The notes under the pieces are model-generated. The model made no database searches and was not told the DNA's origin. It saw only the letters and a program-made list of their open reading frames with translations. From contig NZ_CAHJXL010000001.1 in the NCBI RefSeq assembly GCF_903645315.1, positions 2,284,001-2,348,000 of the forward strand: a DNA stretch of 64,000 nucleotides. The letters run 5' to 3'. The translations under genes were made by a program, and so were the position numbers. Each line of letters opens with the position of its first letter. Position 1 is the first letter of the stretch. Shown piece by piece: positions 367 through 34,470 of the stretch. The stretch comes from Victivallis sp. Marseille-Q1083. Lineage in GTDB: Bacteria > Verrucomicrobiota > Lentisphaeria > Victivallales > Victivallaceae.

Positions 367-2769
367 CTAGCGCAATTCGACGCCGAGGTCGCCGGCCAGT
401 CGTTTGCGCAATTTTTCGAACGCCGCGTTGACCTCTTCGTCGGTGAGCGTCCTTGCCGCATTGCGGAAGGTCAGCTTGTACGCCATGCTCTTCCGGCCGG
501 GACCGAGGATTTTTTCATCTTCGAAGATATCGAACAACTCGATTTTTTCCAGATTTTTCAGCCCGCTCTGCCGGATGAATTTCAAAATTTCCGCATGGGT
601 CAGATTTTCCCGGGCGATAAACGCGACATCGCGGGTCGTCGCCGGGAATTGCGACAGCGGCTGATAATAAAGCGACCGGATTTTGCCGTTCAGGACGGCG
701 GCGACTTCGAACACGGCGGCGAACACCGGATCGGCGGTCCGCCAGTTTTTGGTGTATTCCGGCGCCAGCTTGCCGAGGTGGCCGATCACCCGGCCGTCCA
801 GTTTGATGGCGGCGCAGCAATGCGGCGCGAAACGGGCATCTTCGGTTGCTTCAAAGCCGTAATCGACCAGCTTGCGCTGTTCAAACAGACTTTCGAGCAG
901 GCCTTTGAGATCATAGAAATCATAGCGCGCTTCCAGCTCGGCCGAATAGCGTTCCGGCGCTTTCCGGCCGGAAATCATGATACAGCATTCGGTGCGTTCT
1001 TCCGGAAACAGGGCGGCGTTGCCGCAGAACACCCGGCCGAATTCGAACAGACGGAACGACAGATTGCGGCGGGAGACGTTCCGCTCCACCGTCTGCAGCA
1101 TCTCGCCCCACAGCGACGGCCGCAGCCAGGCCAGTTCCAGGCTCAGCGGATTGCCGATCCGGATCAGGTCCGACGCGCGGAAGCGTTTGTCGCTCAATGC
1201 CGATTCCTCCGACACCATGCTGTAATGCATGCATTCGTAGAGACCGAAATGGATCAGCTCCTCCCGCAATTGCTGGCTGGCCCAATGGGCGTCTTCCGCC
1301 AGCGTGTTGACCACTTTGGCGGCCACCGGCTTCAGCGGCACCATATCCAGGCCGTTGATCCGGGCCACTTCCTCGGCCAGATCCGCTTCCCGCTCCAGGT
1401 CCGGCCGGAAACGCGGCACCCGGACGCGGCAGGATTCCGCCGAAACATCGAATACCGTCAGGCGCAATTTCCGGAAAATATCCATCATCGCTTCGTTGTC
1501 GACTTCATAGCCGAGCAGCCGGCGGACACGGTCGAAACGGCAGAGGATCTCCTTTTCCGGCGGCACTCTTTCGCACACTTCGGCCAGTTCGGTGACCAGT
1601 TCGCCGCCGGCGGTCGCCAGAATCAATTGCACTGCCCGGTCGCTGGCGGTTTTCACCATGTCGAAATCGACGCCGCGTTCATAGCGGTAGGAAGAATCGC
1701 TGGAAATGCCCAGCTCCCGGCTGGTCGCCCGAATATTGGACGGCTGGAACAGGGCGCTCTCCAGCAGGATTTCGGTCGTCGATTCGGTCACCCCGCTGGA
1801 TTCGCCGCCCATGATGCCGGCCAGCGCCATCGGTTGCCCGGCGTCGGCGATGACCAGATGGCGTTCGGCCAGTTTGACCGTTTTGCCGTCCAGCGTCGTG
1901 ATCGTTTCGCCGTCGCGCGCCCGCCGGGCGACGACCCGGCCGCCGCTCAATTTGCTGCGGTCGAAGGCGTGCAGCGGCTGTCCCAGCTCCATCAGGACGA
2001 AGTTGGTGACGTCGACGACGTTGTTGATCGGCCGCAGGCCGATGCTCTGCAGCCGTTCCTTCAGCCAGTCCGGACTTTCGGCGATTTTGACATTGCGGAT
2101 GACGCGGGCGGTGTACAACGGACACAGGTCCGGCGCTTCCACCGTCACCAGATTGTCGATCGTCTCCGGCCGGGCGGCGGCCGGCGCCGCGATTTCCGGC
2201 AGCCTGGCCGTCGTATTCAACAGGCAGGCGACATCGCGGGCGATTCCCCAGTGCGACAGCCAGTCCGGCCGGTTCGGCGTCACTTCCACTTCAATGCAGG
2301 CATCGCCCGGGTAAAGTCGGCCGAGCGGCGTGCCGGCCGGCAAATCGGTCGACAGCTCAAGCAAACCGTCGTCGTCGTCGTTCAGTCCGAGCTCGGCCCC
2401 GCTGCACATCATGCCGCACGATTCAACGCCGCGCAGTTTCGACTTCTTAATTTTGAATTGCCCTTCCGGCGAGACCATCACCGTGCCGACGGTGGCCAGC
2501 GGCACCCGCTTGCCGGCGTCGCAATTCGGCGCGCCGCAGACGATCTGCAGCGTTTCCCGGCCGATGGAAACCCGGCAGACCGACAACTTTTCCGCGTTCG
2601 GATGCGGCTGCCGCTCCAGGATGTCGGCGATCACCACGCCGTCGGGCACCCGTTTGCTTTCTTCGATTGCTTCCACTTCGATTCCGGCCATCGTCAGTTT
2701 CTCGCACAATTTTTCCAACCCACACGAGATATCGACGAATTCCGCCAGCCATTGATAGGATATTTTCAT
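367..2769 (-). CDS. pheT: Phenylalanine--tRNA ligase beta subunit
   Basis: 800 residues, the usual length of bacterial PheT. It pairs with PheS as an alpha2beta2 enzyme charging tRNA-Phe in the cytoplasm. Visible domains in order: the N-terminal EMAP/OB-fold tRNA-binding domain (about residues 40-150, with ADILERQPHPNAEKLSVCRV), the B3/B4 editing domain (about 210-380), the B5 domain (about 400-470), a class II-like core, and the C-terminal ferredoxin-fold anticodon-binding domain (about 705-800, starting YYQPLSQFPATTRDVAFIA). The ATG lies 15 nt after the pheS stop, so it is co-transcribed as the last gene of the thrS-to-pheT cluster. The SD is weak (GGGG). Confidence 0.97.
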   Translation of the reverse strand: MKISYQWLAEFVDISCGLEKLCEKLTMAGIEVEAIEESKRVPDGVVIADILERQPHPNAEKLSVCRVSIGRETLQIVCGAPNCDAGKRVPLATVGTVMVSPEGQFKIKKSKLRGVESCGMMCSGAELGLNDDDDGLLELSTDLPAGTPLGRLYPGDACIEVEVTPNRPDWLSHWGIARDVACLLNTTARLPEIAAPAAARPETIDNLVTVEAPDLCPLYTARVIRNVKIAESPDWLKERLQSIGLRPINNVVDVTNFVLMELGQPLHAFDRSKLSGGRVVARRARDGETITTLDGKTVKLAERHLVIADAGQPMALAGIMGGESSGVTESTTEILLESALFQPSNIRATSRELGISSDSSYRYERGVDFDMVKTASDRAVQLILATAGGELVTELAEVCERVPPEKEILCRFDRVRRLLGYEVDNEAMMDIFRKLRLTVFDVSAESCRVRVPRFRPDLEREADLAEEVARINGLDMVPLKPVAAKVVNTLAEDAHWASQQLREELIHFGLYECMHYSMVSEESALSDKRFRASDLIRIGNPLSLELAWLRPSLWGEMLQTVERNVSRRNLSFRLFEFGRVFCGNAALFPEERTECCIMISGRKAPERYSAELEARYDFYDLKGLLESLFEQRKLVDYGFEATEDARFAPHCCAAIKLDGRVIGHLGKLAPEYTKNWRTADPVFAAVFEVAAVLNGKIRSLYYQPLSQFPATTRDVAFIARENLTHAEILKFIRQSGLKNLEKIELFDIFEDEKILGPGRKSMAYKLTFRNAARTLTDEEVNAAFEKLRKRLAGDLGVELR

Positions 2770-2784
2770 TGTCCAAAACCCCAG

Positions 2785-3804
2785 TTAGAACTGTTCGAGA
2801 AACCGCACGTCGTTTTCATACAGCAGCCGGATATCGTTGATCCGGTAGCGCATCATCGTCAACCGTTCGATGCCCATGCCGAAGGCATAACCGCTCCAGA
2901 TTTCCGGATCGTAGCCGACGTTGCGCAGCACGTTCGGGTCGACCATGCCGGCGCCGGCGATTTCCAGGTAACCGGACTGTTTACAGACCGAACAACCCTT
3001 GCCGCCGCAGATGATGCAACTGAAATCGTATTCGACGCTTGGTTCGGTGAACGGGAAGAAATGCGGCCGCAAGCGGATTTTCACCCCTTTGCCGAACATT
3101 TCCCAGGCGAAGGTCTGCAGCACGCTCTTCAAATCCGCCATCGAAACGTTCCGGTCGATGGAAAGTCCCTCGATTTGATGGAAGTTCATGCTGTGGGTCG
3201 CGTCCGGCGTGTCCCGCCGGAAGCAGCGGCCCGGCGCGACGATCCGCACCGGCGGTTCCTGGCTTTCCATGACCCGGATCTGAACCGGCGAAGTCTGGGT
3301 GCGCAGCAGCCGGCCGTCCGGGAAATAAAAGGTGTCGCCCGGATCGCGCGACGGATGGTCCGCCGGCGTATTCAGCGCGTCGAAGTTATGATAAACGTCC
3401 TCCACTTCCGGCCCGCTGGCGACGATGAACCCCATCCGCCGGAAAATCGCCACACAGTCGTCGATCATCGCGGCGATCGGATGTTTGCGGCCGCTCGACC
3501 ATTTCCGGCCCGGCAGCGTCAGGTCGGGCGGTTCGATTCCGGTCGTTGCGCAGCCGGCCAGCCGATTTTCCGCCGCTTCGAAGAAATTCTGAAATTCGCT
3601 TTTGGCTTCATTGAATGCCTGTCCGACCGCTTTCCGCTCTTCCGGCGGAACCGTGCTCATTTCCTTGCTCAGGGCCGGAAACAGGCCTTTGCGTCCGAAA
3701 ATTTCGATCCGCAACGCTTCCAGCTCGGCGGCGTCGGCCGCCTGTTCGGCGCGGCGTCCGGCCATGGTCAACGCCGCCTGAATCTTTTCGATGATGGGGT
3801 TCAT
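2785..3804 (-). CDS. pheS: Phenylalanine--tRNA ligase alpha subunit
   Basis: 339 residues from the ATG at 3804 (MNPIIEKIQAAL), the normal PheS length. It carries the catalytic class II core: motif 2 around FRRDTPDATHSMNFHQIEGL and motif 3 GMGIERLTMMRY. A Cys-rich insertion CIICGGKGCSVCKQSG is seen in many PheS proteins and may bind zinc. The frame stays open upstream to 3891, but that part reads through the U-tract of the preceding terminator-like hairpin and is Phe-rich, so it is not taken as coding. It lies between rplT and pheT, as in E. coli. Confidence 0.96.
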   Translation of the reverse strand: MNPIIEKIQAALTMAGRRAEQAADAAELEALRIEIFGRKGLFPALSKEMSTVPPEERKAVGQAFNEAKSEFQNFFEAAENRLAGCATTGIEPPDLTLPGRKWSSGRKHPIAAMIDDCVAIFRRMGFIVASGPEVEDVYHNFDALNTPADHPSRDPGDTFYFPDGRLLRTQTSPVQIRVMESQEPPVRIVAPGRCFRRDTPDATHSMNFHQIEGLSIDRNVSMADLKSVLQTFAWEMFGKGVKIRLRPHFFPFTEPSVEYDFSCIICGGKGCSVCKQSGYLEIAGAGMVDPNVLRNVGYDPEIWSGYAFGMGIERLTMMRYRINDIRLLYENDVRFLEQF

Positions 3805-3852
3805 TTTCCAAACCTGTATGTTATTGAACCAGTTAAAATTTGCTGTAAATAC

Positions 3853-3897
3853 AAAAAAAAGACAGCCTGAAAGGGGCGGGGCCACTTCCAAGCTGTC
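3853..3897 (-). terminator. Rho-independent terminator or attenuator between rplT and pheS
   Basis: On the minus strand a hairpin with outer arms GACAGC and GCTGTC (3861-3897) and a long imperfect inner stem is followed at once by eight T. It sits inside the operon, 24 nt after the rplT stop and about 50 nt before the pheS start. It could separate ribosomal-protein from synthetase transcription or let some read-through pass. E. coli has the pheM-controlled attenuator at the same place. No Phe leader peptide is visible before this hairpin. Confidence 0.8.
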
Positions 3898-3921
3898 GGT
3901 GATTCGGTAAGACGAAACAAG

Positions 3922-4275
3922 TTAGTTGGCTTGGGTGACTTTCGCAACCAAGGCCTTAAACTCCTGAAATTCCGTCACTGCCAAATCCGCCAGAACTTTG
4001 CGGTTCAGCTCGATATTGGCCTTTTTCAGACCATTCATAAACTGACTGTAATTGGTGCCGAGCATCCGGCAGGCGGCGTTGATACGCACCGTCCACAAAC
4101 GGCGGTACTGGCGTTTTTTCTGCTTCCGGCCTTCATAGGCGTGCACCAACGCCTTATCGACGGCATCGTAGGCGGTACGAATGTTTTTGCTGCTGCAGCC
4201 GTAGAATCCTTTGGCCTGCTCCAATACCCGTTTCCGGCGTTTTCTGCTGGCGACCGCACAAGTAACTCTTGCCAT
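3922..4275 (-). CDS. rplT: 50S ribosomal protein L20
   Basis: 117 residues, typical L20 ([26 protein letters not shown], then [20 protein letters not shown] and [10 protein letters not shown]). It is an assembly protein of the large subunit that binds 23S rRNA, and in several bacteria it represses its own operon. A GAGG SD precedes the ATG. It follows rpmI by 23 nt. Confidence 0.98.
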
Positions 4276-4298
4276 AGTTTTACCTCACACTTTCCGAA

Positions 4299-4499
4299 TT
4301 ACAGGCCATACGGCAATGCGACTTTGATCCGGCGCTTTTCGGCGCTGGAAACGGCACCGTCTTCTCTGAGGCGGCGGCGGCGGTTGGCGTTCTTGCCGGT
4401 CATCAGGTGACGGGCTCCCACTTTGTTGTGCCGGTACTTGCCGGTACCGGTCATCTTGAGCCGCTTGGCGGCACATTTTCTGGTCTTCAGCTTCGGCAT
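4299..4499 (-). CDS. rpmI: 50S ribosomal protein L35
   Basis: 66 residues, standard L35: MPKLKTRKCAAKRLKMTGTG, then HNKVGARHLMTGKNANRRRRLR. It is a small basic protein of the large subunit. An AAGGAG SD stands before the ATG. A hairpin lies between infC and this gene (4542-4573), the region where L20 autoregulation acts in E. coli. Confidence 0.98.
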   Translation of the reverse strand: MPKLKTRKCAAKRLKMTGTGKYRHNKVGARHLMTGKNANRRRRLREDGAVSSAEKRRIKVALPYGL

Positions 4500-4541
4500 C
4501 GTTTGTACTCCTTGTATTGTGACAAAGTTTTCGCTTTCGCC

Positions 4542-4573
4542 CCGGATCGGCAGATGCCATCAGCCTGATCCGG
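4542..4573 (-). promoter_or_regulatory. Inverted repeat in the infC-rpmI spacer, candidate L20-responsive leader
   Basis: Arms CCGGATC and GATCCGG enclose an inner GGC/GCC pairing, forming a hairpin in the mRNA just upstream of the rpmI ribosome-binding site. In E. coli and Bacillus, L20 represses rpmI-rplT by binding structures in this neighbourhood. Assigning that role here rests on position only. There is no U-tract, so it is not a terminator. Confidence 0.4.
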
Positions 4574-4587
4574 CGCCGCACCGCAAT

Positions 4588-5112
4588 TCAGGGGCGTTTG
4601 TTCGCCTTCGGTGCGAATCCGACCGTGATGCTGCGTCCGAGCATTTTGGGCTTGCCGTCCGAATCACCGTATTCCGCCAGATCCGCCATCACGCGGTCCA
4701 TCAGTTCGAATGCGATGTCCTTGTGCGCCATTTCACGGCCCCGCAACATCAACGTGAGCTTTAATCTACAGCCTTCCTGCAGAAATTCAATCCCGCGTTT
4801 CAATTTTATGTTATAATCGTTGGTGTCGATATTGACGTGGAACTTGACTTCCTTGACTTTCTGGGCCTGATTGTTCTTGCGCTGCGCCTTGAGATTCTTT
4901 TTCTGTTCAAAGACCAGCTTGCCGTAGTCCATGATACGAACCACCGGCGGCACTGCTTTCTCTGAAACCAGTACCAGATCCAGACCGGCTTCCTGCGCCA
5001 GCTCCCTGGCACGCGCATATGAAACAATGTCCAACTGCTCTCCATCCTGGCCGATCAGTCTGACCTCATCGGCGGTGAAAGTACGATCTCCGGGTTTTAA
5101 CAGCTTAGCGAT
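4588..5112 (-). CDS. infC: Translation initiation factor IF-3, starting on an AUC codon
   Basis: IF-3 keeps ribosomal subunits apart and checks the start codon and initiator tRNA. The full N-domain (RTFTADEVRLIGQDGEQLDI, then VSYARARELAQEAGLDLVLV) is only obtained by reading upstream of the first TTG (5034). No ATG, GTG or TTG lies in that stretch after the SD. A strong AAGGAGG sits 8 nt before ATC at 5112-5110, giving 174 residues (E. coli IF-3 has 180). The C-domain ends in GRSITVGFAPKANKRP. IF-3 genes commonly begin on AUU or a similar rare codon, which gives autoregulation. A hairpin (5167-5197) lies between thrS and infC. Confidence 0.93.
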   Translation of the reverse strand: MAKLLKPGDRTFTADEVRLIGQDGEQLDIVSYARARELAQEAGLDLVLVSEKAVPPVVRIMDYGKLVFEQKKNLKAQRKNNQAQKVKEVKFHVNIDTNDYNIKLKRGIEFLQEGCRLKLTLMLRGREMAHKDIAFELMDRVMADLAEYGDSDGKPKMLGRSITVGFAPKANKRP

Positions 5113-5225
5113 AAGAACATCCTCCTTTTTTGCATTCCGACTGACTTACTGTTCCGCGGTAAAGATGCTCCGGCATTGCTTCTCGCCGTACCGGAGCCAA
5201 AATCCGCTCTTTCAATAATATAGAG

Positions 5226-6956
5226 TCAGCAGATTTTATTATCAACCTCATTTTGCATTTTTTCTGCAACTTGCTCGATGGAAAGAGCGCCGACTTCTCC
5301 TTCACGCCGCGTCCGTACCGCGATCCGCCGTTCCGCCGCTTCCCGCTCGCCGATGACCAGCAGATAAGCGATCCGTTCATTGCGGGCGTCCTTGATGCGG
5401 CCGCCGAGTCCCATCGACCGGTCGTCCACTTCGACGCGCAATCCCTTTCGCTTCAGTTCGCGCGCCGCTTCCCAGGCGAAATCCCGCTGCTTTTCGGTGA
5501 TCGGCAGGATTCTGGCCTGGATCGGCGCCAGCCACAGCGGGAAGGCGCCGGCATACTGTTCGACCAGAATGCCGAAGAAGCGTTCCAGCGAACCGAACAA
5601 CGCCCGGTGGACCATGTAAGGCCGGTGTTTTTTGCCGTCTTCGCCGATATAGGACATGTCGAAACGTTCCGGCAGATTGAAGTCGAACTGAATCGTCGAG
5701 GTCTGCCATTCCCGGCCGATCGCATCCTTGATTTTCAAGTCGATCTTCGGGCCGTAGAAGGCGCCGCCGCCTTCGTCGACTTCGCATTGCAGCCCGGCTT
5801 TGCGCACGGCATTTTCCAATGAGTGCAGTGCTTGTTCCCAGCGTTCCGGTTCGCCGACCGCCTTGGCCGGCCGGGTCGCCAGATACGGCTTGATTTCAGT
5901 GAAGCCGAAGGTCTTCCAGATGTTCAGGCTGAAACGCAGCACCTCGGCGATCTCTTCCTCGATCTGTTCCGGCGTGCAGAAGATGTGCGAATCATCCTGG
6001 GTGAAGCCGCGCACCCGCAGCAGGCCGTGCAGCACGCCGGATTTTTCATAACGGTAAACCGTGCCCAGCTCCGCCCAGCGCAGCGGCAGTTCCCGGTAGG
6101 AACGCAGCCGCGATTTGTAAATTTCGATGTGAAACGGACAGTTCATCGGTTTGACGAAATACTCGGCATCGTCGATCTTGATCGGCGAATACATCGCATC
6201 CTTGTAGCATTCGAGGTGACCGCTGACCCGCCACAGGTCGCTGCGGCCGATGTGCGGCGTGTAGAGCAACTCGTAACCGTTCCGGTAATGTTCGGCCCGC
6301 CAGTAGGTTTCGAAGGCGTTGCGGATGAAGGCGCCCTTCGGATGCCACAAGACCAGGCCGGGCCCGACGTTATCGGAGAAGCTGAACAGGTCCAGCTCCT
6401 TGCCCAGTTTGCGGTGGTCGCGCTTTTTGGCCTCTTCCAGCAGCTGCAGATAGGCGTGCAGTTCCGCTTTGTCGGCAAACGCCGTGCCGTAAATACGCTG
6501 CAGCATCGGGTTCTTTTCGTCGCCGCGGAAATAGGACCCGGCGATCGACATCAGCTTGAACGCGCCGATCTGGCCGGTGTGCTCGACGTGCGGGCCGCGG
6601 CACAGGTCGGTGAAATCGCCGCACCGGTAAAAACTGATTCTTTCGCCTTCCGGAATGTCTTTCAGGCGCTCCAGCTTATAGGGCTGGTTGTTGTCGCGCA
6701 GCAACTTTTCCGCTTCCGCCCGGCTCAGTTCGAAAGATTCGAACGGCAGTTTTTTATTGCAGAGCTTGCGCATCGCCGCTTCGATCGTTTCCAGATCTTC
6801 CGGCGTCAGCCGATGCGCCATGTCGAAATCGTAATAGAAGCCGTCCCCGGTTGCCGGACCGATGTCGAATTTGACGTCGCCGAACAACTCTTTGACCGCC
6901 GCCGCCATCACATGGGAGGCGCTGTGACGAATCGTTTCCAAAGGAAATTTACTCAT
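5226..6956 (-). CDS. thrS: Threonine--tRNA ligase lacking the N-terminal TGS domain
   Basis: 576 residues against about 640 in E. coli. The protein begins directly with the editing domain: MSKFPLETIRHSASHVM carries the HxxxH editing motif at residues 11-15, and CRGPHVEHTG follows later. The class II core is complete, with MNCPFHIEIYK (zinc Cys), RYEKSGVLHGLLRVRGFTQD (motif 2), DDSHIF, and the C-terminal anticodon domain with GERE and RTR. Only the N1/TGS domain is missing. The start ATG overlaps the stop of a 65-codon frame (ATGA), and the 200-nt leader before it is structured. It is first in the thrS-infC-rpmI-rplT-pheST cluster. Confidence 0.96.
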   Translation of the reverse strand: MSKFPLETIRHSASHVMAAAVKELFGDVKFDIGPATGDGFYYDFDMAHRLTPEDLETIEAAMRKLCNKKLPFESFELSRAEAEKLLRDNNQPYKLERLKDIPEGERISFYRCGDFTDLCRGPHVEHTGQIGAFKLMSIAGSYFRGDEKNPMLQRIYGTAFADKAELHAYLQLLEEAKKRDHRKLGKELDLFSFSDNVGPGLVLWHPKGAFIRNAFETYWRAEHYRNGYELLYTPHIGRSDLWRVSGHLECYKDAMYSPIKIDDAEYFVKPMNCPFHIEIYKSRLRSYRELPLRWAELGTVYRYEKSGVLHGLLRVRGFTQDDSHIFCTPEQIEEEIAEVLRFSLNIWKTFGFTEIKPYLATRPAKAVGEPERWEQALHSLENAVRKAGLQCEVDEGGGAFYGPKIDLKIKDAIGREWQTSTIQFDFNLPERFDMSYIGEDGKKHRPYMVHRALFGSLERFFGILVEQYAGAFPLWLAPIQARILPITEKQRDFAWEAARELKRKGLRVEVDDRSMGLGGRIKDARNERIAYLLVIGEREAAERRIAVRTRREGEVGALSIEQVAEKMQNEVDNKIC

Positions 6957-15953: not shown

Positions 15954-18194
15954 ATGAATGAATTGAACCAGGGCGCCATCGGCGTGCTGACTTCCGGCGG
16001 CGACGCCCAGGGCATGAATGCCGCTATCCGGGCGGTGGTCCGCAGCGCGATTGCGGCCGGATTCGAAGTGTTCGGCGTCTATGAGGGCTATCAGGGCCTG
16101 GTGGATGACCGGATTGAGGCGATGGGATGGGAGTCGGTGAGCGGCGTCATGGAGTTCGGCGGTACTTTTCTCGGCACTGCCCGCAGCATGGAATTCAAAA
16201 CGCATGCCGGGCTTTTGAAAGCGGTGGCCAATCTGCTGAAACACCGGATCGACAAACTGGTGGTCATCGGCGGCGACGGCAGTCTGGCCGGCGCGGATGA
16301 GTTGCGGGCGAAATGGCCGGAACTGGTCCGGGAGCTGGTTCAGGACAACCGGGCGCCGGCCGGCGCCATCGAAGCGTTTCCGCAACTGAAAATCGTCGGC
16401 ATGGTCGGCTCCATCGACAATGACATGGCCGAGACCGAAATGACCATCGGCGCCGATACGGCCCTGCATCGCATCTGCGAGGCAGTCGATGCGTTGAGCA
16501 GCACGGCCTTCAGCCATCAGCGCACCTTCATCGTCGAGGTGATGGGCCGCAACTGCGGTTATCTGGCGCTGATGAGCGCGATCGCCGCCGGCGCCAGCAT
16601 CGTGTTCATCCCGGAAGCGCCGCCGGTGGAAAATTGGGAGCGTTCGATCTGCACGCTGCTCGAGGCCAGCCGCAAAGCCGGCCGCCACGATCACATCATC
16701 ATCGTCGCCGAGGGGGCCCGCGACCGCAGCGGCAAACTGATCACTTCGGCTTATATCCAGGAAGTGCTGGACAAGCGGCTGCACATCGAATCGCGTATCA
16801 CCATCCTCGGTCACGTTCAACGCGGCGGCGCGCCGAGCGCGTTCGACCGTTATATGAGTACCGCTTTCGGTTGTGTCGCGGTCGAATCCTTCACCAAGGA
16901 TACCAGCAACGAATCGCGGCTGGTCGCGCTGCGCGGCAACCGGGTCTGCACCGTTCCGCTGATGGACGCGGTCGCCAAAACCCGGGCGACTGCCGCCGCG
17001 ATTGCCGCCGGTGAATACGCCAGGGCCGATGAATTGCGCGGCAGCGACTGGTGCAAAATGGGCGATATCTACCGGACGCTGGCGCTGGCGGTGCCGTCGC
17101 TGCGTGAACCCGGGTCGGTTCGCCGCCGCCTCAGGATCGGCATGATCACCAGCGGCTGGCCGGCGCCGGGCATGAACAGCGCGCTGCGCACCATCAGCCG
17201 CCTCAGCCAGGAAGCCGGACATCAGGTCATCGGCATCGTCGACGGCGCGGACGGCCTGATCCAGAACCGCACCCGGGAATTTTCCTGGATGGAGGTGGAA
17301 AACTGGAATTCGAAGGGCGGCTCCAAGCTTGGCGCCAACCGCCATCTGCCCGGCGACCGTGATTTCTATGCCGTCGCCCGGACGCTGGAACAGTTGAAGC
17401 TCGACGGACTCGTCATGGTCGGCGGCTGGTCCGGTTACCTGTTGACCGATTTGCTCAACGAGCGCCGCAAGGAATTCCCGTCGTTCCGGCTGCCGATCGT
17501 CTGCGTGCCGGCCAGCATCAACAACAATCTGCCGGGCGCCGAATTGGCGATCGGGCCGGATACCGCCTTGAATACCATCGTCGAAGCGATCGACAAGATC
17601 AAGCATTCCGCCGACAGCGCCCGGAGGGTGTTCATCGTCGAAGTGATGGGGCGTTACTGCGGTTATCTGGCGATGATGAGCGGACTGGCCTGCGGCGGCG
17701 AATATGTCTATTTGCACGAAGACGGTTTGAAGCTGGCGCGGCTGCAGCACGATATCGAAGAACTCAAGCGGCAGTTCAGCAGCGCCGAACGGCACATGGC
17801 GTTGATCATCCGCAACGAACTGGTCAATCCGACCTATACGACGGATTTCATCGAGCAGTTGTTCTCCGAGGAGAGCGACGGCTGGTTCGATGTCCGCAAA
17901 ACGATCCTCGGGCCGATGCAGCAGGGCGGGACGCCGAGTCCGTTCGACCGCATCCAGGGCGTCCGGCTCGGCCATCTCGGCCTGACCGCCTTGATCGACC
18001 GCATCACCCGGGATTCTTCCTGCTGCGCGTTCGTCGGCCAGAGCGAAGGCAAGCTACGGGTGTTCGACTGGCACGAATTGCGGGCGATGGTATCCAGCCG
18101 CCTCCAGCGGCCGCAGGAGCAGTGGTGGCTCGGCCTGAAGCAGATGGCCGAAATGCTGAACCGCCGTCCGATTGCCGCCGGCGAAAAGGCGTAA
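15954..18194 (+). CDS. 6-phosphofructokinase, two fused PFK domains, eukaryote-like
   Basis: 746 residues from the ATG at 15954 (GGAGG 8 nt upstream). It phosphorylates fructose 6-phosphate. Two PFK domains lie in tandem. The N-half (about 1-370) is catalytic: GGDGS (106-110, the ATP type), SIDND (153-157), VEVMGRNCGYLAL, FIPEAPP, GHVQRGGAPSAFDR. The C-half (about 392-746) has lost the catalytic residues: GGWSG (490-494) and SINNN (521-525), while VEVMGRYCGYLAM is kept. The same split, with an active N-half and a degenerate regulatory C-half, is known in animal and fungal PFK, and wording such as VGSIDND and ISNN/INNN is close to the animal enzyme. An SDR gene follows by 6 nt. Confidence 0.93.
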   Translation: MNELNQGAIGVLTSGGDAQGMNAAIRAVVRSAIAAGFEVFGVYEGYQGLVDDRIEAMGWESVSGVMEFGGTFLGTARSMEFKTHAGLLKAVANLLKHRIDKLVVIGGDGSLAGADELRAKWPELVRELVQDNRAPAGAIEAFPQLKIVGMVGSIDNDMAETEMTIGADTALHRICEAVDALSSTAFSHQRTFIVEVMGRNCGYLALMSAIAAGASIVFIPEAPPVENWERSICTLLEASRKAGRHDHIIIVAEGARDRSGKLITSAYIQEVLDKRLHIESRITILGHVQRGGAPSAFDRYMSTAFGCVAVESFTKDTSNESRLVALRGNRVCTVPLMDAVAKTRATAAAIAAGEYARADELRGSDWCKMGDIYRTLALAVPSLREPGSVRRRLRIGMITSGWPAPGMNSALRTISRLSQEAGHQVIGIVDGADGLIQNRTREFSWMEVENWNSKGGSKLGANRHLPGDRDFYAVARTLEQLKLDGLVMVGGWSGYLLTDLLNERRKEFPSFRLPIVCVPASINNNLPGAELAIGPDTALNTIVEAIDKIKHSADSARRVFIVEVMGRYCGYLAMMSGLACGGEYVYLHEDGLKLARLQHDIEELKRQFSSAERHMALIIRNELVNPTYTTDFIEQLFSEESDGWFDVRKTILGPMQQGGTPSPFDRIQGVRLGHLGLTALIDRITRDSSCCAFVGQSEGKLRVFDWHELRAMVSSRLQRPQEQWWLGLKQMAEMLNRRPIAAGEKA

Positions 18195-18200
18195 GCGCCG

Positions 18201-18947
18201 ATGGAGTTGAAGGGCAAACGCATCCTGATCACCGGCGGCGCCGTCCGGGTCGGCGCCGCGATTGCCGGGATGCTGGCCGATGCCGGTGCCCGAGTGGTCA
18301 TCCATTGCCGCCGTTCGCAGCAGGCGGCCGGACAGTTGCTGGCGGCGCTGCCGGGGGAGGGACATGCGCTGGCGGTGGCCGATTGGAACGAACCCGGCGC
18401 CGTCGAGGCGCTGCTGCCGTCGATCGGCCGGGTGGATGGCCTGGTCAACAATGCTTCGGTGTTTCATCCGGGAACGCTGGCGGAAGACAATCCGGAGGCG
18501 GATGCGGATCACTGGCGGGTGAATTACCTGGCGCCGCTGGCGCTGATGCGGGCCTTGAACAACCAGGCCGGTTTGACGGAGGGGGTCATCCTCAATCTGC
18601 TCGATCAGGAGGTGGCGCAGAGTGCCGCCTGGGGCGGGATTTACGGCTTGTCCAAGCGGGCGCTGCGAGACGCGACGCTGGCGGCGGCGCTGGAATGGGC
18701 GCCGCGCATCCGGGTGAACGGTCTGGCGCCCGGTCCGGTACTGGCGCCACCCGGCCTGGAACATCTCAGGATGCGGAAAACGCTGCGGCAGGTGCCGATG
18801 CAACGGCCGGTGGCGATGGCGGACTTGCTGGCCGGCTGCCGTTTCCTGCTGGAAAATGATTCGGTGACCGGCCAGATCCTTTACGTCGATGGCGGCCAGC
18901 ACCTGCGGCAGCGGGCGGCTGCCGCTTCGGTTTTGCCGTGTGATTGA
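18201..18947 (+). CDS. Short-chain dehydrogenase/reductase, pteridine-reductase-like
   Basis: 248 residues. The Rossmann motif ILITGGAVRVGAAIAGMLAD, the LVNNASVFHPG segment and the catalytic YGLSK are present. The TGG..RVG form and the NNAS motif are most like FolM/pteridine reductases, which reduce dihydropterins with NADPH. That subfamily call is tentative. It is probably co-transcribed with the tandem PFK gene. Confidence 0.8.
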   Translation: MELKGKRILITGGAVRVGAAIAGMLADAGARVVIHCRRSQQAAGQLLAALPGEGHALAVADWNEPGAVEALLPSIGRVDGLVNNASVFHPGTLAEDNPEADADHWRVNYLAPLALMRALNNQAGLTEGVILNLLDQEVAQSAAWGGIYGLSKRALRDATLAAALEWAPRIRVNGLAPGPVLAPPGLEHLRMRKTLRQVPMQRPVAMADLLAGCRFLLENDSVTGQILYVDGGQHLRQRAAAASVLPCD

Positions 18948-27574: not shown

Positions 27575-28013
27575 AAAATAACCTGAAGTGTACCCGAAAA
27601 ATTGGAGGCGGCCTCTGGGACGCACTTCAGGCTGCTTTCAGCCTTCTCCTCTCGTTTCCGTTCCGCCAGAAACATTTTTCCTTGTGGCCACACTGAACGT
27701 CACGCCTTGGCGTCTGCTCAGCGTCGTTTGAATGATGCAAGCCGGTAACGGTGATAATATATGGATATTTTTCTGTTGTCGTAAGATTGGCAGTCAGACC
27801 AGAAGGCTGCCGGTGATTCAACCGCCCACATGAACGCAAAGACCGGGAAACTTGACGAGATGGCGTTTTCACGCTTTTCATCGGCTGGTTGCCGAATCCA
27901 ACTGTTCTCCCGCGCTGCGCCAGATCTCCGCAACGGTGTCCTTTTCCTCCCCAAAGGACACCGTTGCGGACCAATGCCGGGAATAATAGACAAAAACTTG
28001 CAGATGGTATCTA
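27575..28013 (+). other. Gene-poor spacer of 439 nt at the start of the AT-richer region
   Basis: No convincing gene is seen. The spacer contains an inverted repeat CCTGAAGTG/CACTTCAGG (27582-27631) just after miaA, a long perfect hairpin (27928-27969), and AT-rich arms AATAATAGA/TCTATTATT (27982-28018) at the stop of the GH123-like gene. Base composition falls across it. It may be a remnant of an older insertion. Confidence 0.5.
27928..27969. repeat. 17-bp perfect inverted repeat
   Basis: CCGCAACGGTGTCCTTT (27928-27944) pairs exactly with AAAGGACACCGTTGCGG (27953-27969) around an 8-nt loop. No T-run follows on either strand, so it is not a typical terminator. It could be a dispersed palindromic repeat or the end of a mobile element. 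Confidence 0.85.
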
Positions 28014-30506
28014 TTATTCAATAATGCCATTCACTCCGAAAGCATTTCCCCATGGTTTCACTTCTTGAATTCTCGAGGTGGTAATTAGTTCGATCAACCC
28101 GTCTCGATATGCATTGAAGTCTCGGGGATCGAGTGAATAGGTACGTAAATCTTTTACCAGGGAATCCGGTACTTCAAGCAGGTTGCCGGCTTTGGCAAGC
28201 CATACTTGTTGTTCAACAGTGGGATTATTGAGTTTTTTATGTTCTTCAAACATTGCCTGTGCAATGCAATAATAGGCATAATCATCCAGCCCATCTCGAA
28301 TATTTTCCAACCGTATGCTCGGAACCAACTTTCCATCGGAGGTCGGATAAACCAACAAGCCGTCTCCGTGGTATGCAATCTCATCGTCGGTATGGCCCTG
28401 CCAACTGACACCATTCCAGTCGGTAAACGGCCCATCCGCCAGGTAGGTGTTGCCCCACCATTGGCACATGCTGTAATAAAGGAATCCGTCCGGCTTGAAT
28501 TTGATGGTTTGCGGCCCCATCAGACTTCGCGCTGAAGCCGGAGTATTTTCAAAAAAGAAATTGGCGTAGGGCTCGAAGGGCATACAACAAACATACCACC
28601 ATACTTTTTTGCCGTTTGCCCGGGCCTTTTCCGCCATTGCCGGATCGTACTGCGGAGTCAACGGACACCAGGCGTCAACACTCTTAACAATACTGTCGGT
28701 ACCGAAAGAATGATCGTATGCAGTGGTCATCGTCGTTACTTCGGGAAATTCCTGTTTGAGACGTGCCATAACTTTTTCCAGCTGGGCGAACAATTCCGGG
28801 GGACGTTCGTCAAAACCGTAAATATAGGCATAATCCAGAAGGCCGCGTCTTTTTATCTCTTCATAGCAAGGGCGGATTCGTTCCACCAGGTCTTCCAGAT
28901 CCTGATCCGCTACTTCTGAATTCACGTTGTTGTAAACATTAAAAAGATTAAAGGTAACCAACCTCCCGGCCTCGGCAAGTTCGCTGAGAATATCATATTC
29001 AGGGGCTTCCATTCGGTAAATTGAATCAAAATCGATATAATATTCAGCAAGGAATCTTGCATATTCAAAACTTTGGCTGGCCCAGTTTTTTTCGACTTGT
29101 TGACGCTTTAAGAATGTAAACGCGGTCGGAATTGGCGAATGCGGCGGCATGGTGAACGGTAAAACTGTAACAGAAAGATTGAACTTGTGCAAAATCTGAT
29201 CTCCGGCGCTGACGGTGATCAGGCCGGAATATTCGCCGGGAGTCTGGTCGGATGGGGCTTTCATTCTGACAAAGAAACTCTGGAGGATTCCCGGTTCGAT
29301 TGCGCAACTGGTCATATACTCAAGAATTGGGTCTGCATACCATCCTGTGTAGTCGGTTACAAAGCTGGTACGTTCCTTTACTTCGACAAACCCTATTACC
29401 GGTGTTTGAATATTTTCCGGTGGGAAAATGACTCCATCGGCGGATTTCAGTTCTCCAACTGTAACTTTTACATTTTCAAGTTTACTCTCCAACGGCAGAA
29501 CTGCCACCTGGAATGATTCATATTCCCTTCTGGCGATTTTTACGGAAATATCGTCGGAAACAGTGAGGTTATACGAGGCGGTGTCAGGGCTCAATTGAGA
29601 AGACGCAGGAGCGAATCCGACTGCCGCAACAGGGCTTTCGGCTTGCGATTCATGATAATTGTCAATAAAAGTAATATCGGAAACTAGCCGACGGAGCTTT
29701 GCCGGGAGGTTGTAGAATGCCAGTTGAGCCGCTTTATAATCTTCATAACTGCATTCTGTGTTCATTTTTGCCAGCAATTCGGCATATTCTTCTTTTATTT
29801 TATTAAATTCACCGATAAATTCTTGCGCATATTTGGTCGTTTTGCAGAATTCAATGGTTTTTATTCCGTTCGCAAGTTCCTTTTTAATTTGCGAATCCCG
29901 TTCTTTCATCAATGGCCACAGATTTTTTACATCCTGATTTGAAAGCAAAGGCAATTCCTCGCCTGGTTTCAGCAAGCGAAAACCGGAAAAAAAGACATCG
30001 ACCCCTTCCCGTATTTCAGAGGAATAAAGGTGCATTACGTTGATGTCGCTGAGATCTATTGTTTCAGCGACTTTTTTTAAATCGATGATTCCACGTGTCA
30101 ATGCGGCATTTTCCAAATGCAGAAAGGTCCGGAAACCCTGCCTAACCGGTTTTTTGCTGTCGGAAATGGCAAGTCCCATCACAAAGGAAGTCGCAGGATT
30201 GGGATTTACCGAGTAAACGACCAATCTGTCGTATTCCGACCAATCTCCGAGCGGGCCATTGTATTCAAAAGACGGCCAGCGTTCCATCCCGTCAATAAAT
30301 TCAGGGCTGAGAAAATGAATTGATTTGTCACTATGAACCGCATATTCATTTGAAATGCCCAATATATTACTGCGCTGGTTGTTGCTCCAGTTTTTCAGCG
30401 CATCTTTTGAGGAAAAGTCGAAAAGCTCCTCTGCTGCTCCCATCATCGTTGTACATATTAATGCTCCAGCGAAGAGGCAGAATTTCATGCCCGGCAAACT
30501 TCTCAT
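28014..30506 (-). CDS. Secreted GH123-like protein (DUF4091-type catalytic domain)
   Basis: 830 residues. A signal peptide (GMKFCLFAGALICTTMMGAA) leads to an N-terminal beta-rich carbohydrate-binding-like domain (about 25-190), a helical linker (about 195-275), a beta-sandwich (about 300-450) and a TIM-barrel-like domain (about 455-780). AYIYGFDERPPE holds the Asp566-Glu567 pair that fits the catalytic dyad of GH123 enzymes, which release N-acetylgalactosamine by substrate assistance. RLENIRDGLDDYAYY is the usual end motif. Its codons are AT-richer than the flanking operons. The exact substrate is unknown. Confidence 0.8.
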   Translation of the reverse strand: MRSLPGMKFCLFAGALICTTMMGAAEELFDFSSKDALKNWSNNQRSNILGISNEYAVHSDKSIHFLSPEFIDGMERWPSFEYNGPLGDWSEYDRLVVYSVNPNPATSFVMGLAISDSKKPVRQGFRTFLHLENAALTRGIIDLKKVAETIDLSDINVMHLYSSEIREGVDVFFSGFRLLKPGEELPLLSNQDVKNLWPLMKERDSQIKKELANGIKTIEFCKTTKYAQEFIGEFNKIKEEYAELLAKMNTECSYEDYKAAQLAFYNLPAKLRRLVSDITFIDNYHESQAESPVAAVGFAPASSQLSPDTASYNLTVSDDISVKIARREYESFQVAVLPLESKLENVKVTVGELKSADGVIFPPENIQTPVIGFVEVKERTSFVTDYTGWYADPILEYMTSCAIEPGILQSFFVRMKAPSDQTPGEYSGLITVSAGDQILHKFNLSVTVLPFTMPPHSPIPTAFTFLKRQQVEKNWASQSFEYARFLAEYYIDFDSIYRMEAPEYDILSELAEAGRLVTFNLFNVYNNVNSEVADQDLEDLVERIRPCYEEIKRRGLLDYAYIYGFDERPPELFAQLEKVMARLKQEFPEVTTMTTAYDHSFGTDSIVKSVDAWCPLTPQYDPAMAEKARANGKKVWWYVCCMPFEPYANFFFENTPASARSLMGPQTIKFKPDGFLYYSMCQWWGNTYLADGPFTDWNGVSWQGHTDDEIAYHGDGLLVYPTSDGKLVPSIRLENIRDGLDDYAYYCIAQAMFEEHKKLNNPTVEQQVWLAKAGNLLEVPDSLVKDLRTYSLDPRDFNAYRDGLIELITTSRIQEVKPWGNAFGVNGIIE

Positions 30507-30863
30507 ATTGGATTCATCCTTCTAATTTTCTAATCACAAAACGGTGCGGCCTCGCGTACAAACGCAGGTCTGTGGCCGACACTCTCTGGCGTATTGTAAT
30601 AATTACATCGCCCGCTTGGCAAACGGTAAGTCATCTTCATTTTACAAGTGATATCAATTGCCGATACCATAGGAACAGTTCAGTCAACTGCCACCATTTG
30701 TCAATGGTGGCAGCTCAATCATATTCACGCAGAATCCTGCATCTTTTGGGGCGGAATAACTGTTATGATTATCGGCATTAGGCGTCTCCATGACCGGAAG
30801 TGTTTTGGTATTGACTCCTTCTTGATTTCCGCCATCTTCCACACCGCATGATCCTTCAGCGAA
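30507..30863. other. 357-nt spacer with a strong hairpin
   Basis: No gene is supported. An 11-bp perfect hairpin, CTGCCACCATT and AATGGTGGCAG with a 4-nt loop (30688-30713), lies downstream of the pseudopilin gene without a U-tract. It may act as an mRNA 3' end. AAGGA at 30520 is the SD of the GH123-like gene. Confidence 0.5.
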
Positions 30864-31622
30864 TCATTCCTCGTAATACCACTTATTGTCATTCTGATAT
30901 GGACGAAAATATTTGGTAACATCAATGCGGCACTGCATGCGCTTCAGCCCCAATGCGCTGCCGTCCATGAGCGCCAAATTGGCTGAATTGGAATGCGGAG
31001 TATGCAGCGGATAAGCGGCCATGAGGCCAGAGGACGCGTCGAATAAACCATCTTCATTCTCACTCCTGATGGACGCCCCGCTGATCATATAGCCGTTGGC
31101 GCGCCAATTGTTGGGCGCCATAAGTTCCGACACCGAACAACCGAATACCGCCGGATTCTCCCCGTTCGTGCATAGATTGGCAAGGGTTGTCAATTTAACC
31201 GGTTTCTGGGCTGAACCGTGAGAGTAACCAAATGTAGCCATATTTTGCCCGATCGTTATGCCCCTTTCGAACAGTACCCCGGCGTTACGTCCTTTATATT
31301 GGCCTTCGGCTGCCGCACATAAAAAAACATCTCCCGAAATACCGTACAACAACTCATACATTAACGGCCACGAGGTCCACGCGTTGTTATTCGTACTGTC
31401 CCGTATTTCTGCAGAAGTGGAGTAATCATCATGATCCAGTGCGTACATCGTAAAAACCAGAGCGAGCTGCTTCATATTGCTTCGACATTTTATTGCGAGC
31501 GCTTTTGCCTTCGCTTTACCCAGGGCCGGCAGCAACATGCTGGCAAGAATCGCAATAATAGCGATGACCACGAGCAATTCTATCAGTGTGAATCTTTTAA
31601 CCATTTTTTTTTGAACCTTCAT
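30864..31622 (-). CDS. Type II pseudopilin-like protein (H-X9-DG family)
   Basis: 252 residues from ATG 31622 (ATG 31604 is an alternative). The N-terminus [19 protein letters not shown] is a class III leader plus hydrophobic helix, with Glu at position 5 after the expected cleavage before Phe. The C-terminus has [12 protein letters not shown], the H-X9-DG motif found in the large pseudopilin families of Planctomycetes and Lentisphaerae. No secretion apparatus genes are near, so it is an orphan copy. Its role beside secreted hydrolases is unknown. Confidence 0.88.
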
Positions 31623-31765
31623 TGAAATATTATTTTCTTTGTTGATAACATTTTTGCATACAGTAAAGTAATTTTTACAACGCATCCTGTTCAATTTACA
31701 TATTAAATCTCCTTTGCAATTTTTCAAATTGTCTTGTGTCAAATTTTAACAGTTTTGGTGCGCAT

Positions 31766-31779
31766 TTGCCAATTGGCAA
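31766..31779. promoter_or_regulatory. 14-bp perfect palindrome upstream of the pseudopilin gene
   Basis: TTGCCAATTGGCAA lies between the EEP stop and the pseudopilin gene, about 145 nt before its start. It could be an operator, or a short hairpin ending the EEP message. No U-tract follows. Confidence 0.3.
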
Positions 31780-31782
31780 TCA

Positions 31783-32550
31783 CTAAAAATCCATCGTCAC
31801 GAAATAGTGATCACTGGGAAACATGCCGTTGACACTGTCTTTGATAATCGTCGCATCTTTGGGGCTGATTCCACCTCGATAAAAGATGAAATCCATTTTG
31901 CCGAAAACGGAATTGTCAAACGCCGGTCCGATAAAATCGTGATAGGTAAAGCCGGGTTCTTCCACTTTATGTACCACTTGATAGCTCTCCTTCCAGCCTC
32001 CTCCCACCAGACGCTGCATCGCCGGATTGATGATATCGCAGTTCATATCACCGGAAAGAATATGCGGCAGGGTTGCCGGATATTGAGAGATTTCGCGATT
32101 AATCACTTCCGCCTGCTTCTCGCGGGCCAATTGGCTGATATGATCCAAATGCGTATTGACAAAACGGAAACAATCTCCGGTAATTTGATCTTCCAGCAAT
32201 ATCGCGTTGGCGAACCGAACGCAATCGCTGGCCCAGGATTTACTGCCCAGGACATCAGGTGTTTCCGAAAGCCAGTAACTTTTGCCTTCGACTAAACGGT
32301 AACGGTCATTACGATAAAAAATCTGATTCAGCGGATGACCATTCTCTTCGTCAATCGTTCCAAAGGTGGCATATTCCGGAAAAGCCGTATGCAAATCACG
32401 GAATTGTTCTATTCGCATCTCTTGAAATCCAATCAGGTCAGGCGCATATCGATGAATTACATCAATACAGGCAGCACGGCGATTGTTCCAGCAATAGTGG
32501 GTATCCGGTGCGCTGCACACCCGGATATTAGATGTCATGATTTTGGGCAT
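31783..32550 (-). CDS. Endonuclease/exonuclease/phosphatase (EEP) family protein
   Basis: 255 residues, no signal peptide. The EEP catalytic motifs are all present: TSNIRV, LIGFQEMR, VNTHLDHIS, LSGDMNCD, MDFIFYRG and FPSDHYFV. Members cleave phosphoesters in DNA, inositol phosphates, sphingolipids or nucleotides. The sequence does not show which. In sugar-use loci of this kind the gene stands beside a transporter. The end of a second copy survives at 36450-36623. Codon use is AT-richer than the housekeeping genes. Confidence 0.88.
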   Translation of the reverse strand: MPKIMTSNIRVCSAPDTHYCWNNRRAACIDVIHRYAPDLIGFQEMRIEQFRDLHTAFPEYATFGTIDEENGHPLNQIFYRNDRYRLVEGKSYWLSETPDVLGSKSWASDCVRFANAILLEDQITGDCFRFVNTHLDHISQLAREKQAEVINREISQYPATLPHILSGDMNCDIINPAMQRLVGGGWKESYQVVHKVEEPGFTYHDFIGPAFDNSVFGKMDFIFYRGGISPKDATIIKDSVNGMFPSDHYFVTMDF

Positions 32551-32796
32551 AGCATATCTTCCGTTGAGATGTTGTCCTTATGATTAGTTGATTTGGAATT
32601 TTAAATCGATAAAATATTTGATTTGGCGAGTAATCATCTTCAATATTCCAATCCTTCTTTGCTATGAAACTAAATTACATTCTTTAATTTATTCCGGATT
32701 TAAACAACTTTTATGCAATTTCAATAAGATTTTGTGAGTATCATGCTTTCTGTAAAGACCTTTTCCAGGTAAAATTCATCATGATTCCTGCTCTGC

Positions 32797-32819
32797 TATA
32801 TTCGATTTACCGGTGAATC
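32797..32819 (+). promoter_or_regulatory. Promoter -10 element and LacI-type operator before the regulator gene
   Basis: TATATT (32797-32802) is followed at once by the near-palindrome GATTTACCGGTGAATC (32804-32819). The same arrangement, GCTATATTC then GATTTCCCGGTAAATC, occurs before the transporter gene at 34142-34169. The central CCGG with mirrored AT arms fits a LacI-family site. The -35 is weak (TTCATC). The spacer from 32551 to 33003 holds nothing else that could be supported. Confidence 0.6.
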
Positions 32820-33006
32820 ATCAATAAGTATAGTTAATTTTGACGAGAAAGTCAATAGTCGGGACGGATTTTTTTCAAAAAAAATCGCAAAAAGAAAGAA
32901 AATCACTGAAAAGAAAGATTCCGACATTGCATTTGGGAAAAAAATTGTCACTTTAAAAAAGTGATTCGGAAAGCAGGGTTGTCAAAATTTCAGGAGTTTT
33001 CAAGTG

Positions 33007-34062: not shown

Positions 34063-34118
34063 GCGGACGGTGTTTACTGAACTTTAAATTTTTTCTCGTT
34101 GTTTTTGATTTTTTCCTC

Positions 34119-34169
34119 TTGCTTTTTCTTCAAAGGTTTGCTATATTCAATTAGATTTCCCGGTAAATC
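34119..34169 (+). promoter_or_regulatory. Promoter and LacI-type operator before the large transporter gene
   Basis: TTGCTT (34119-34124), a 17-nt spacer and TATATT (34142-34147) form a good sigma70 site. GATTTCCCGGTAAATC (34154-34169) overlaps the expected transcription start, where bound repressor would block initiation. The leader to the transporter ATG is about 300 nt and shows no gene. Confidence 0.65.
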
Positions 34170-34470
34170 AAAAAATGGTCTGTTACGGAATGCCGTCCGA
34201 TAACCTCGGCGCCGCCGGAACAGAGGAGTATGAACAGGAGTGAAGCGAATTAATTTTTTTATTGAAAAAGATATTTTCTGAAGGCGATGTAAAGATAAAA
34301 AAATCCGGGAAAATCCTTAATTTTCTTGGATTTTGAGGGTTATAATTTGGAAGTGATTTTGATGTTGGTCGCGCCAAACGTTGCAACATCATTGGCACTT
34401 GTCTTCATTTCAGGGGGCTGGAAATGGCTTGTCAATAGCTCAATTCCTTTTTCAGAAAGCAGCAGAAGAA

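What the first reader, a model, noticed from the sequence alone, without database searches (positions are those of the whole stretch)
15954..18194. Eukaryote-type tandem phosphofructokinase in a bacterium
One 746-residue protein holds two PFK domains. The N-half keeps GGDGS and SIDND. The C-half replaces them with GGWSG and SINNN but keeps the fold motifs. Animal and fungal PFK has the same active N-half and degenerate regulatory C-half, arising by duplication. The text of the N-half (VVIGGDGSLAGAD, VGSIDND, SHQRTF, GHVQRGG) is strikingly close to the animal enzyme. Either a bacterial lineage made the same fusion, or it lies near the source of, or received, the eukaryotic gene. The degenerate half could be an allosteric sensor.
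Basis: partly seen in the sequence, partly recalled or inferred. Interest (0 to 1): 0.7.

Follow-up and report, generated by a model that had tools for sequence, protein, structure and literature searches.

The report
Animal-type double phosphofructokinase in bacteria
This bacterium carries the same double phosphofructokinase (a working half joined to a dead, probably sensing half) that animals and fungi use to control sugar burning; the joining is shared with eukaryotes and trees suggest, without settling it, that it happened first in bacteria.

Summary
Window 15954-18194 (+) encodes 746 aa with two collinear PFK domains, 891.7 bits against TIGR02478 '6PF1K_euk' (cut-off 708.4), 44% identical to human PFKP. 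Independent fusion is rejected: its N-half groups with eukaryotic N-halves and its C-half with eukaryotic C-halves (AU p 3e-23 against a separate eukaryotic fusion, 2e-113 against one in the window's order), and the halves share insertions. But the lineage is not special: the tandem enzyme is scattered over bacteria (seeds included: 22 of 387 genomes in its phylum, 21 of 221 and 13 of 217 in two others), and others are nearer to human PFK. Rooted trees place animal and fungal PFK inside the bacterial family (bootstrap 99-100; 'eukaryotes first' p 0.03-0.04 in rooted concatenations, but 0.10-0.28 in three other tests). Likely mechanism: ATP-PFK chemistry in the N-half; a dead C-half site that kept its sugar-phosphate pocket and senses F1,6BP or F6P. 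Eukaryotes use this pocket for F2,6BP, yet 0 of 28 tandem-bearing genomes show a PFK-2 over cut-off. The textbook 'eukaryotic' duplication may be bacterial, and its F2,6BP pocket older than F2,6BP signalling.

The parts
15954..18194 (+). tandem two-domain ATP-type 6-phosphofructokinase, 746 aa
   Evidence: TIGR02478 891.7 bits over cut-off 708.4, residues 8-738; PF00365 twice
15972..16991 (+). N-terminal catalytic PFK domain (about residues 7-346)
   Evidence: the catalytic and F6P-binding residues checked are present in the window; D103, D127, R162, R171, E222, R243, H249, R252 equivalents are kept in 80 of 80 bacterial tandem proteins
16269..16283 (+). GGDGS (residues 106-110), ATP/Mg site
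   Evidence: D in 80 of 80
16320..16409 (+). N-half insertion region between GGDGS and SIDND (about residues 123-152): 42-residue spacing in most tandem N-halves against 19-21 in most single-domain PFKs
16410..16424 (+). SIDND (residues 153-157), catalytic base D155
   Evidence: D in 80 of 80
17124..18029 (+). C-terminal degenerate, probably regulatory PFK domain (about residues 391-692)
   Evidence: D103, D127 and D129 equivalents replaced by W, N, N; sugar-phosphate residues R463, R558, E622, R648, Q656, Q657 present
17421..17435 (+). GGWSG (residues 490-494), lost Mg/ATP motif
   Evidence: D103 equivalent lost in 80 of 80 C-halves
17514..17528 (+). SINNN (residues 521-525), lost catalytic base
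18201..18947 (+). adjacent SDR-family oxidoreductase (pteridine-reductase-like), 6 bases downstream; perhaps co-transcribed, not part of the enzyme
   Evidence: among the 23 loci L006-L028 (flanks of 1.5 kb or less) a homologue was found only in L008 and L012 besides the window's own copy L022

Best explanation
The gene encodes a bacterial member of the tandem (eukaryote-type) ATP-dependent 6-phosphofructokinase family. Shown by sequence: the N-half keeps the catalytic residues checked; the C-half lost the Mg/ATP aspartate and, in the window, the catalytic base, but kept nearly all residues that hold the sugar phosphate; the fusion is the same event as in animals and fungi. Inferred: the N-half phosphorylates F6P with ATP, and the C-half is an allosteric module whose former active site binds F1,6BP or F6P (no F2,6BP-making enzyme was found), passing the signal through the shared interfaces as in PFKP/PFKL. 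Inferred from rooted trees, moderate support: the fusion arose in bacteria, and eukaryotes took over the finished tandem gene, later using the old sugar pocket for F2,6BP.
For: Split-domain trees: all N-halves one clade and all C-halves one clade, eukaryotes included (SH-aLRT 100 and 100, 94 rows; 99/95 and 99/95, 82 rows). AU tests: eukaryotic N+C as one clade dlnL 192.9, p 3e-23; window-order N+C as one clade dlnL 266.9, p 2e-113. Shared insertions: GGDGS-to-SIDND spacing is 42 in 69 of 80 bacterial and 6 of 6 eukaryotic N-halves, 26 in 78 of 80 and 6 of 6 C-halves, 19-21 in 30 of 32 single-domain PFKs measured and 25 in the other two, L004 and L005. N-half catalytic residues kept 80 of 80; C-half D103 equivalent lost 80 of 80. 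C-half pocket: R471eq 76/80, R566eq 79/80, E629eq 79/80, R655eq 78/80, Q663eq 79/80. PFK-2 (PF01591) over cut-off in 0 of 28 tandem-bearing genomes. Bacterial rooting: a deep bacterial clade lies outside eukaryotes plus other bacteria in both halves (99/99 and 100/95); eukaryotes-first p 0.031 and 0.0375.
Against: Eukaryotes-first is not rejected in the single-half or joint tests (p 0.279, 0.273, 0.102). The place of eukaryotes inside the main clade shifts between trees (beside L163 in the C-halves, early, beside the window's order). Only six eukaryotic chains (two human, four yeast) were in the trees; no amoebozoan or other protist. In the window's order the pocket histidine (PFKM H661) is proline in 21 of 21 and R735 is Q in the window, so ligand binding may differ there. 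No structure model could be made. No activity or ligand was measured. The PFK-2 search gave two weak matches under cut-off (G025, G388) and no control genome over cut-off.
Confidence: 0.78

Rival explanations
1. A bacterial lineage made its own tandem fusion, convergent with the eukaryotic one.
For: Tandem fusion of PFK could recur; the divergent L161/L165/L166 group may be a separate fusion, since its place is unstable (its N-halves stood next to the C clade).
Against: AU p 2e-113 for the window's order, 3e-23 for eukaryotes; shared insertions and near-equal linker length (115 in the window, 112-115 in six eukaryotic chains).
Confidence: 0.01
2. The bacterial genes came from eukaryotes by one or more horizontal transfers, and spread among bacteria.
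For: Patchy distribution: one hit (the seed itself) of 299 genomes drawn from Accumulibacter's phylum and one (the seed) of 194 from that of Planktothricoides. Eukaryotes-first not rejected in three tests. The window's order beside eukaryotes at 60/80.
Against: Paralogue-rooted and outgroup-rooted trees put a deep bacterial clade outside eukaryotes (99/99 and 100/95, p 0.031 and 0.0375). The deep-clade loci L153-L156 lie on contigs that reach at least 541, 15, 129 and 306 kb, so they are not stray fragments.
Confidence: 0.2
3. The C-half is only a structural partner that completes the tetramer and binds no effector.
For: Some pocket residues changed in the window's order (H661eq to P, 21 of 21).
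Against: Purifying pattern: in the C-half first and second codon positions are 62-75% identical against 39-53% at third positions, in five pairwise comparisons; sugar-phosphate residues R471, R566, E629, R655, Q663 equivalents in 76-79 of 80.
Confidence: 0.2
4. The C-half is a second active site with altered chemistry (for example PPi- or ADP-dependent).
For: 31 of 80 C-halves keep the catalytic base equivalent (D127) and 62 of 80 keep R171.
Against: D103 equivalent lost 80 of 80; the window's own C-half lost D127 and D129 as well.
Confidence: 0.04
5. Contamination or misassembly with eukaryotic DNA.
For: None found for the window; some other loci are short MAG contigs.
Against: Gene on a 3.88-Mb contig, intron-free, host-like GC3; 22 of 387 genomes of the phylum (own one included) carry it, all in the window's own family or order.
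Confidence: 0.01

Closest known systems
Eukaryotic PFK-1 (human PFKP/PFKM/PFKL; yeast and Komagataella alpha/beta), TIGR02478 6PF1K_euk
   Same: Tandem domains, collinear over about 730 aa, same insertions, active N-half, dead C-half, conserved sugar-phosphate pocket in the C-half
   Different: Bacterial host without a PFK-2 over cut-off; C-half keeps R at the PFKM G575 position (62 of 80 bacteria, 0 of 6 eukaryotes); H661 equivalent is P in the window's order; no yeast-type extra N-terminal domain
Single-domain bacterial PFK-A (E. coli PfkA, Geobacillus PFK)
   Same: Catalytic residues of the N-half; effector-site residues R21 and R25 present in both halves of the window protein
   Different: Half the length; lacks the insertions
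Tandem PFKs of other bacteria (Accumulibacter, Competibacteraceae, Planktothricoides, Actinomyces, Arsenicicoccus, Mycolicibacterium agri, Chloroflexota MAGs)
   Same: Same family by tree and motifs
   Different: 31 of 80 bacterial C-halves keep D at the base position (SIDNN, TIDNN and the like), none of the window's order; 57 of 59 outside that order keep H at the H661 position

Membership tests
Eukaryote-type tandem ATP-PFK (TIGR02478) | Whole-length match over the curated cut-off | tested here: met
   891.7 bits against 708.4, residues 8-738
Eukaryote-type tandem ATP-PFK (TIGR02478) | N-half and C-half group with the matching eukaryotic halves (one shared fusion) | tested here: met
Eukaryote-type tandem ATP-PFK (TIGR02478) | Catalytic residues in the N-half, lost in the C-half | tested here: met
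Eukaryote-type tandem ATP-PFK (TIGR02478) | F2,6BP pocket residues in the C-half (positions of PFKM recalled) | tested here: inconclusive
   R463, R558, E622, R648, Q656, Q657 present; H661 equivalent is P654 and R735 equivalent is Q718 in the window
Eukaryote-type tandem ATP-PFK (TIGR02478) | N1/N2 nucleotide effector sites | tested here: inconclusive
   Only a recalled N2 list of eight residues was tried, two of which did not fit the chain; positions D543, N341, F308, F671 are largely kept, 246, 315 and 538 not
Eukaryote-type tandem ATP-PFK (TIGR02478) | ATP-dependent PFK activity, F2,6BP/ATP/citrate response, tetramer assembly | not testable with these tools
   needs purified protein
PPi-dependent PFK | GGDD in place of GGDG (recalled rule) | tested here: not met
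   GGDGS at 106-110; the PPi-type models listed are below their cut-offs
Single-domain bacterial PFK-A | One PFK domain of about 320 residues with the short 19-21-residue spacing | tested here: not met
   Two domains; spacing 42 in 69 of 80 tandem N-halves and 26 in 78 of 80 C-halves. The single-domain models TIGR02482 (516.3 against 371.35) and NF002872 (547.2 against 253) also pass their cut-offs, as sums over several stretches.

The most novel reading that the evidence does not exclude
The duplication and tandem fusion that made animal and fungal phosphofructokinase-1 took place in bacteria; eukaryotes received the finished two-domain gene. The allosteric pocket that eukaryotes use for fructose 2,6-bisphosphate was inherited as a working sugar-phosphate sensor and existed before F2,6BP signalling, which later captured it.
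Probability: 0.5. Interest if true: 0.78.

Novelty: new variant of a known kind. Interest (0 to 1): 0.62.

Why it matters
The tandem PFK is a textbook case of a gene duplication that created new regulation in eukaryotes. A 2025 review (PMC12203962, sections 5 and 7 in full, other passages by term) and a 2024 paper (PMC11609450, passages) describe it, in the parts I saw, only for eukaryotes. If bacteria made the fusion, the origin of a main control point of animal glycolysis moves to bacteria, and bacterial tandem PFKs without PFK-2 become natural test cases for what the C-half sensed before F2,6BP.

Tried and rejected
Adjacent but separate PFK genes in L054, L056, L059 and L063 were considered as unfused precursors; each pair is an ATP-type PFK beside a GGED-type (L054) or GGDD-type (the other three) one, so I rejected them by motif, not by a tree of the second genes. 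L161/L165/L166 (divergent tandem proteins) were considered as stem members: L161 fell outside the other N-halves, with its C-half on a very long branch next to the midpoint root; with L165, L166 and 15 singles added, their N-halves stood beside the C clade (C-halves on a 2.9-change branch), so their place is left open. Plasmid-borne relatives: none at 1e-80. Literature: the listings (one search found nothing) showed no report of tandem PFK in bacteria, in that library only, with those terms; one search returned mostly unrelated papers. I saw titles and abstract starts, plus parts of three papers (PMC12203962, PMC2990764, PMC11609450). Structure comparison was not possible.

Rows dropped before counts. 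One search used 32 tandem proteins (26 bacterial, 6 eukaryotic) and 30 of 33 single-domain PFKs (L004, L005, L111 left out). The 80 bacterial tandem proteins are the 83 less L045, L046, L050 (same genes as L164, L137, L160); L149 could not be extracted; the partial loci L023, L028, L049, L051 and the duplicate loci L001, L003, L022, L141, L151, L152 were not used. One search used 35 of the 80; searches used 34 (without L161); searches used all 80 with 6 eukaryotic and 20 of 33 single-domain rows; one search used 27 bacterial, 6 eukaryotic and 10 outgroup rows; one search used 16 bacterial and 4 eukaryotic tandem proteins, L161/L165/L166 and 15 singles. The spacing was first measured in 20 of 33 singles and, on checking, in 32 of 33 (L111 had no motif): 30 have 19-21, L004 and L005 have 25. 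In the constraint L161 was left free.

Full report
What is there. Window 15954-18194 (+) encodes 746 residues without a stop, with GGAGG upstream of the ATG. Pfam sees PF00365 twice. NCBIfam's 'eukaryotic' PFK model TIGR02478 matches residues 8-738 in one piece at 891.7 bits, cut-off 708.4. The best solved relatives are animal PFKs over nearly the full length, then yeast ones, with single-domain bacterial PFKs far behind. The gene sits on a 3.88-Mb contig of a nearly complete bacterial genome with host-like GC3. The genome holds three more PFK genes: L002, best match the ATP-PFK subfamily model NF002872 over its cut-off; L004, NF005301 over cut-off; and L005, PPi-type NF005482 over cut-off, which lies in the window near 47211-48005 (-).

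Where else it occurs. With TIGR02478 over its cut-off, seed genomes included: 22 of 387 genomes of the window's phylum, all in the window's own family or order (one further genome there has a fragment under cut-off); 21 of 221 in the phylum of a Chloroflexota MAG; 13 of 217 in the phylum of Mycolicibacterium agri; 1 of 299 and 1 of 194 in the phyla of Accumulibacter and Planktothricoides, each the seed itself; 8 of 247 in the phylum of the 'Deltaproteobacteria' MAG; 3 of 199 in that of an Aminicenantes MAG.

One fusion, not two. I split each protein into halves and built trees with single-domain PFKs. All N-halves form one clade and all C-halves another, eukaryotes included: SH-aLRT 100 and 100 on 94 rows; bootstrap/SH-aLRT 99/95 each on 82 rows without singles. 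Forcing eukaryotic halves together costs 192.9 log units (AU p 3e-23); forcing the window's order's halves together costs 266.9 (p 2e-113). Independent of trees, the spacing between GGDGS and SIDND is 42 residues in 69 of 80 bacterial and 6 of 6 eukaryotic N-halves and 26 in 78 of 80 and 6 of 6 C-halves, but 19-21 in 30 of 32 single-domain PFKs; the other two, L004 and L005 of distant PFK groups, have 25.

Which way it went. Because both halves descend from one duplication, each roots the other. In both halves a deep bacterial group (L136, L137, L153-L156, L158, L160) lies outside a clade of eukaryotes plus the remaining bacteria (99/99 in N, 100/95 in C; 100/99 and 100/99 with fewer rows and outgroup singles). 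The deep group itself is a clade at 98/86 in the C-halves but only 92/19 in the N-halves. Concatenating the halves with single-domain outgroups, a tree with eukaryotes branching first is disfavoured: dlnL 77.6, p 0.031 (LG+F+R5, fast search, 106 rows); dlnL 37.45, p 0.0375 (C20 mixture, 43 rows). Other tests do not reject it: N alone p 0.279, C alone 0.273, both jointly under a simple model 0.102. I therefore hold 'bacterial origin' at about one half, not as shown. The window's order stands next to eukaryotes with only 60/80 support in one tree and elsewhere among bacteria in others; it is not singled out as donor or recipient. Identity to human PFKP is 44.4% for the window, 51.4% for Accumulibacter, and up to 51.1% in the Chloroflexota-phylum set.

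How it probably works. Mapping recalled active-site positions, the N-half keeps the Mg aspartate, the catalytic base, and the R162, R171, E222, R243, H249 and R252 equivalents in 80 of 80 bacterial proteins. The C-half lost the D103 equivalent in 80 of 80 (W in 52), yet kept the sugar-phosphate residues: PFKM R471 (76 of 80), R566 (79), E629 (79), R655 (78), Q663 (79), Q664 (62) and H661 (57; P in 21 of 21 of the window's order). In human PFK this pocket binds F2,6BP, and held F1,6BP in a PFKP crystal (PMC12203962 section 7). None of 28 tandem-bearing genomes has a 6PF2K domain over cut-off; two have short weak matches under it, and no control genome was over cut-off either, so the null is only moderately controlled. 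I infer that the bacterial C-half senses F1,6BP or F6P. The C-half evolves under constraint, with first and second codon positions well above third, so it is not decaying. Effector-site residues are divided between the halves: the C-half keeps R154 as K or R (79 of 80) and E187 as E (77 of 80), the N-half mostly not. These two columns are the C-half citrate-site positions PFKM K557 and D591 (PMC2990764, passages).

What is known. PMC12203962 and PMC11609450, in the parts I read, speak of the tandem duplication for animals, fungi and other eukaryotes. My searches listed no paper on bacterial tandem PFK; older subscription papers (for example Bapteste 2003, known to me from the review's text and reference list) were not available, so priority is not certain.

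Verdict. A real, conserved, eukaryote-type tandem PFK. The wider point, that the 'eukaryotic' fusion and its F2,6BP pocket may be bacterial inventions, is the interesting one and is directly testable.

Noticed in passing
window 47211-48005 (-), part of a longer ORF: A PPi-type PFK gene (GGDDS; NCBIfam NF005482 over cut-off) lies about 29 kb from the tandem PFK; the genome has four PFK genes in all.
   Followed up: partly
Could be a stem lineage or a second, independent fusion.
   Followed up: partly
L137 and L135 (genome G387): One Chloroflexota MAG holds two tandem PFKs, one from the deep group and one from the main clade.
   Followed up: no
L054, L056, L059, L063: An ATP-type PFK gene sits beside a GGED-type (L054) or GGDD-type PFK gene on the same strand, with 0 to about 36 bases between them in L054, L056 and L063 and some 380 in L059; perhaps a two-enzyme unit.
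   Followed up: no
L038, ORF 2024-6247: The Arsenicicoccus bolidensis tandem PFK lies in a 1408-residue open frame that reaches about 650 residues upstream; a fused domain or only an open high-GC frame.
   Followed up: no
window 58446-58523 and 58532-58609 (-): Two tRNA-Pro(CGG) genes stand head to tail and look identical.
   Followed up: no
window 28001-34000: GC falls to 0.45-0.50 against mostly 0.55-0.65 elsewhere in the window (0.517 in 34001-36000); it holds a prepilin-like protein, a LacI-like regulator and an endonuclease/phosphatase-like protein (names recalled from sequence, not searched). Possibly acquired.
   Followed up: no
window 15954-18194, residue 654 and equivalents: The C-half pocket histidine of tandem PFKs is proline in 21 of 21 members of the window's order; among the other 59 bacterial proteins only L140 (Q) and L161 (T) lack the histidine.
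   Followed up: partly
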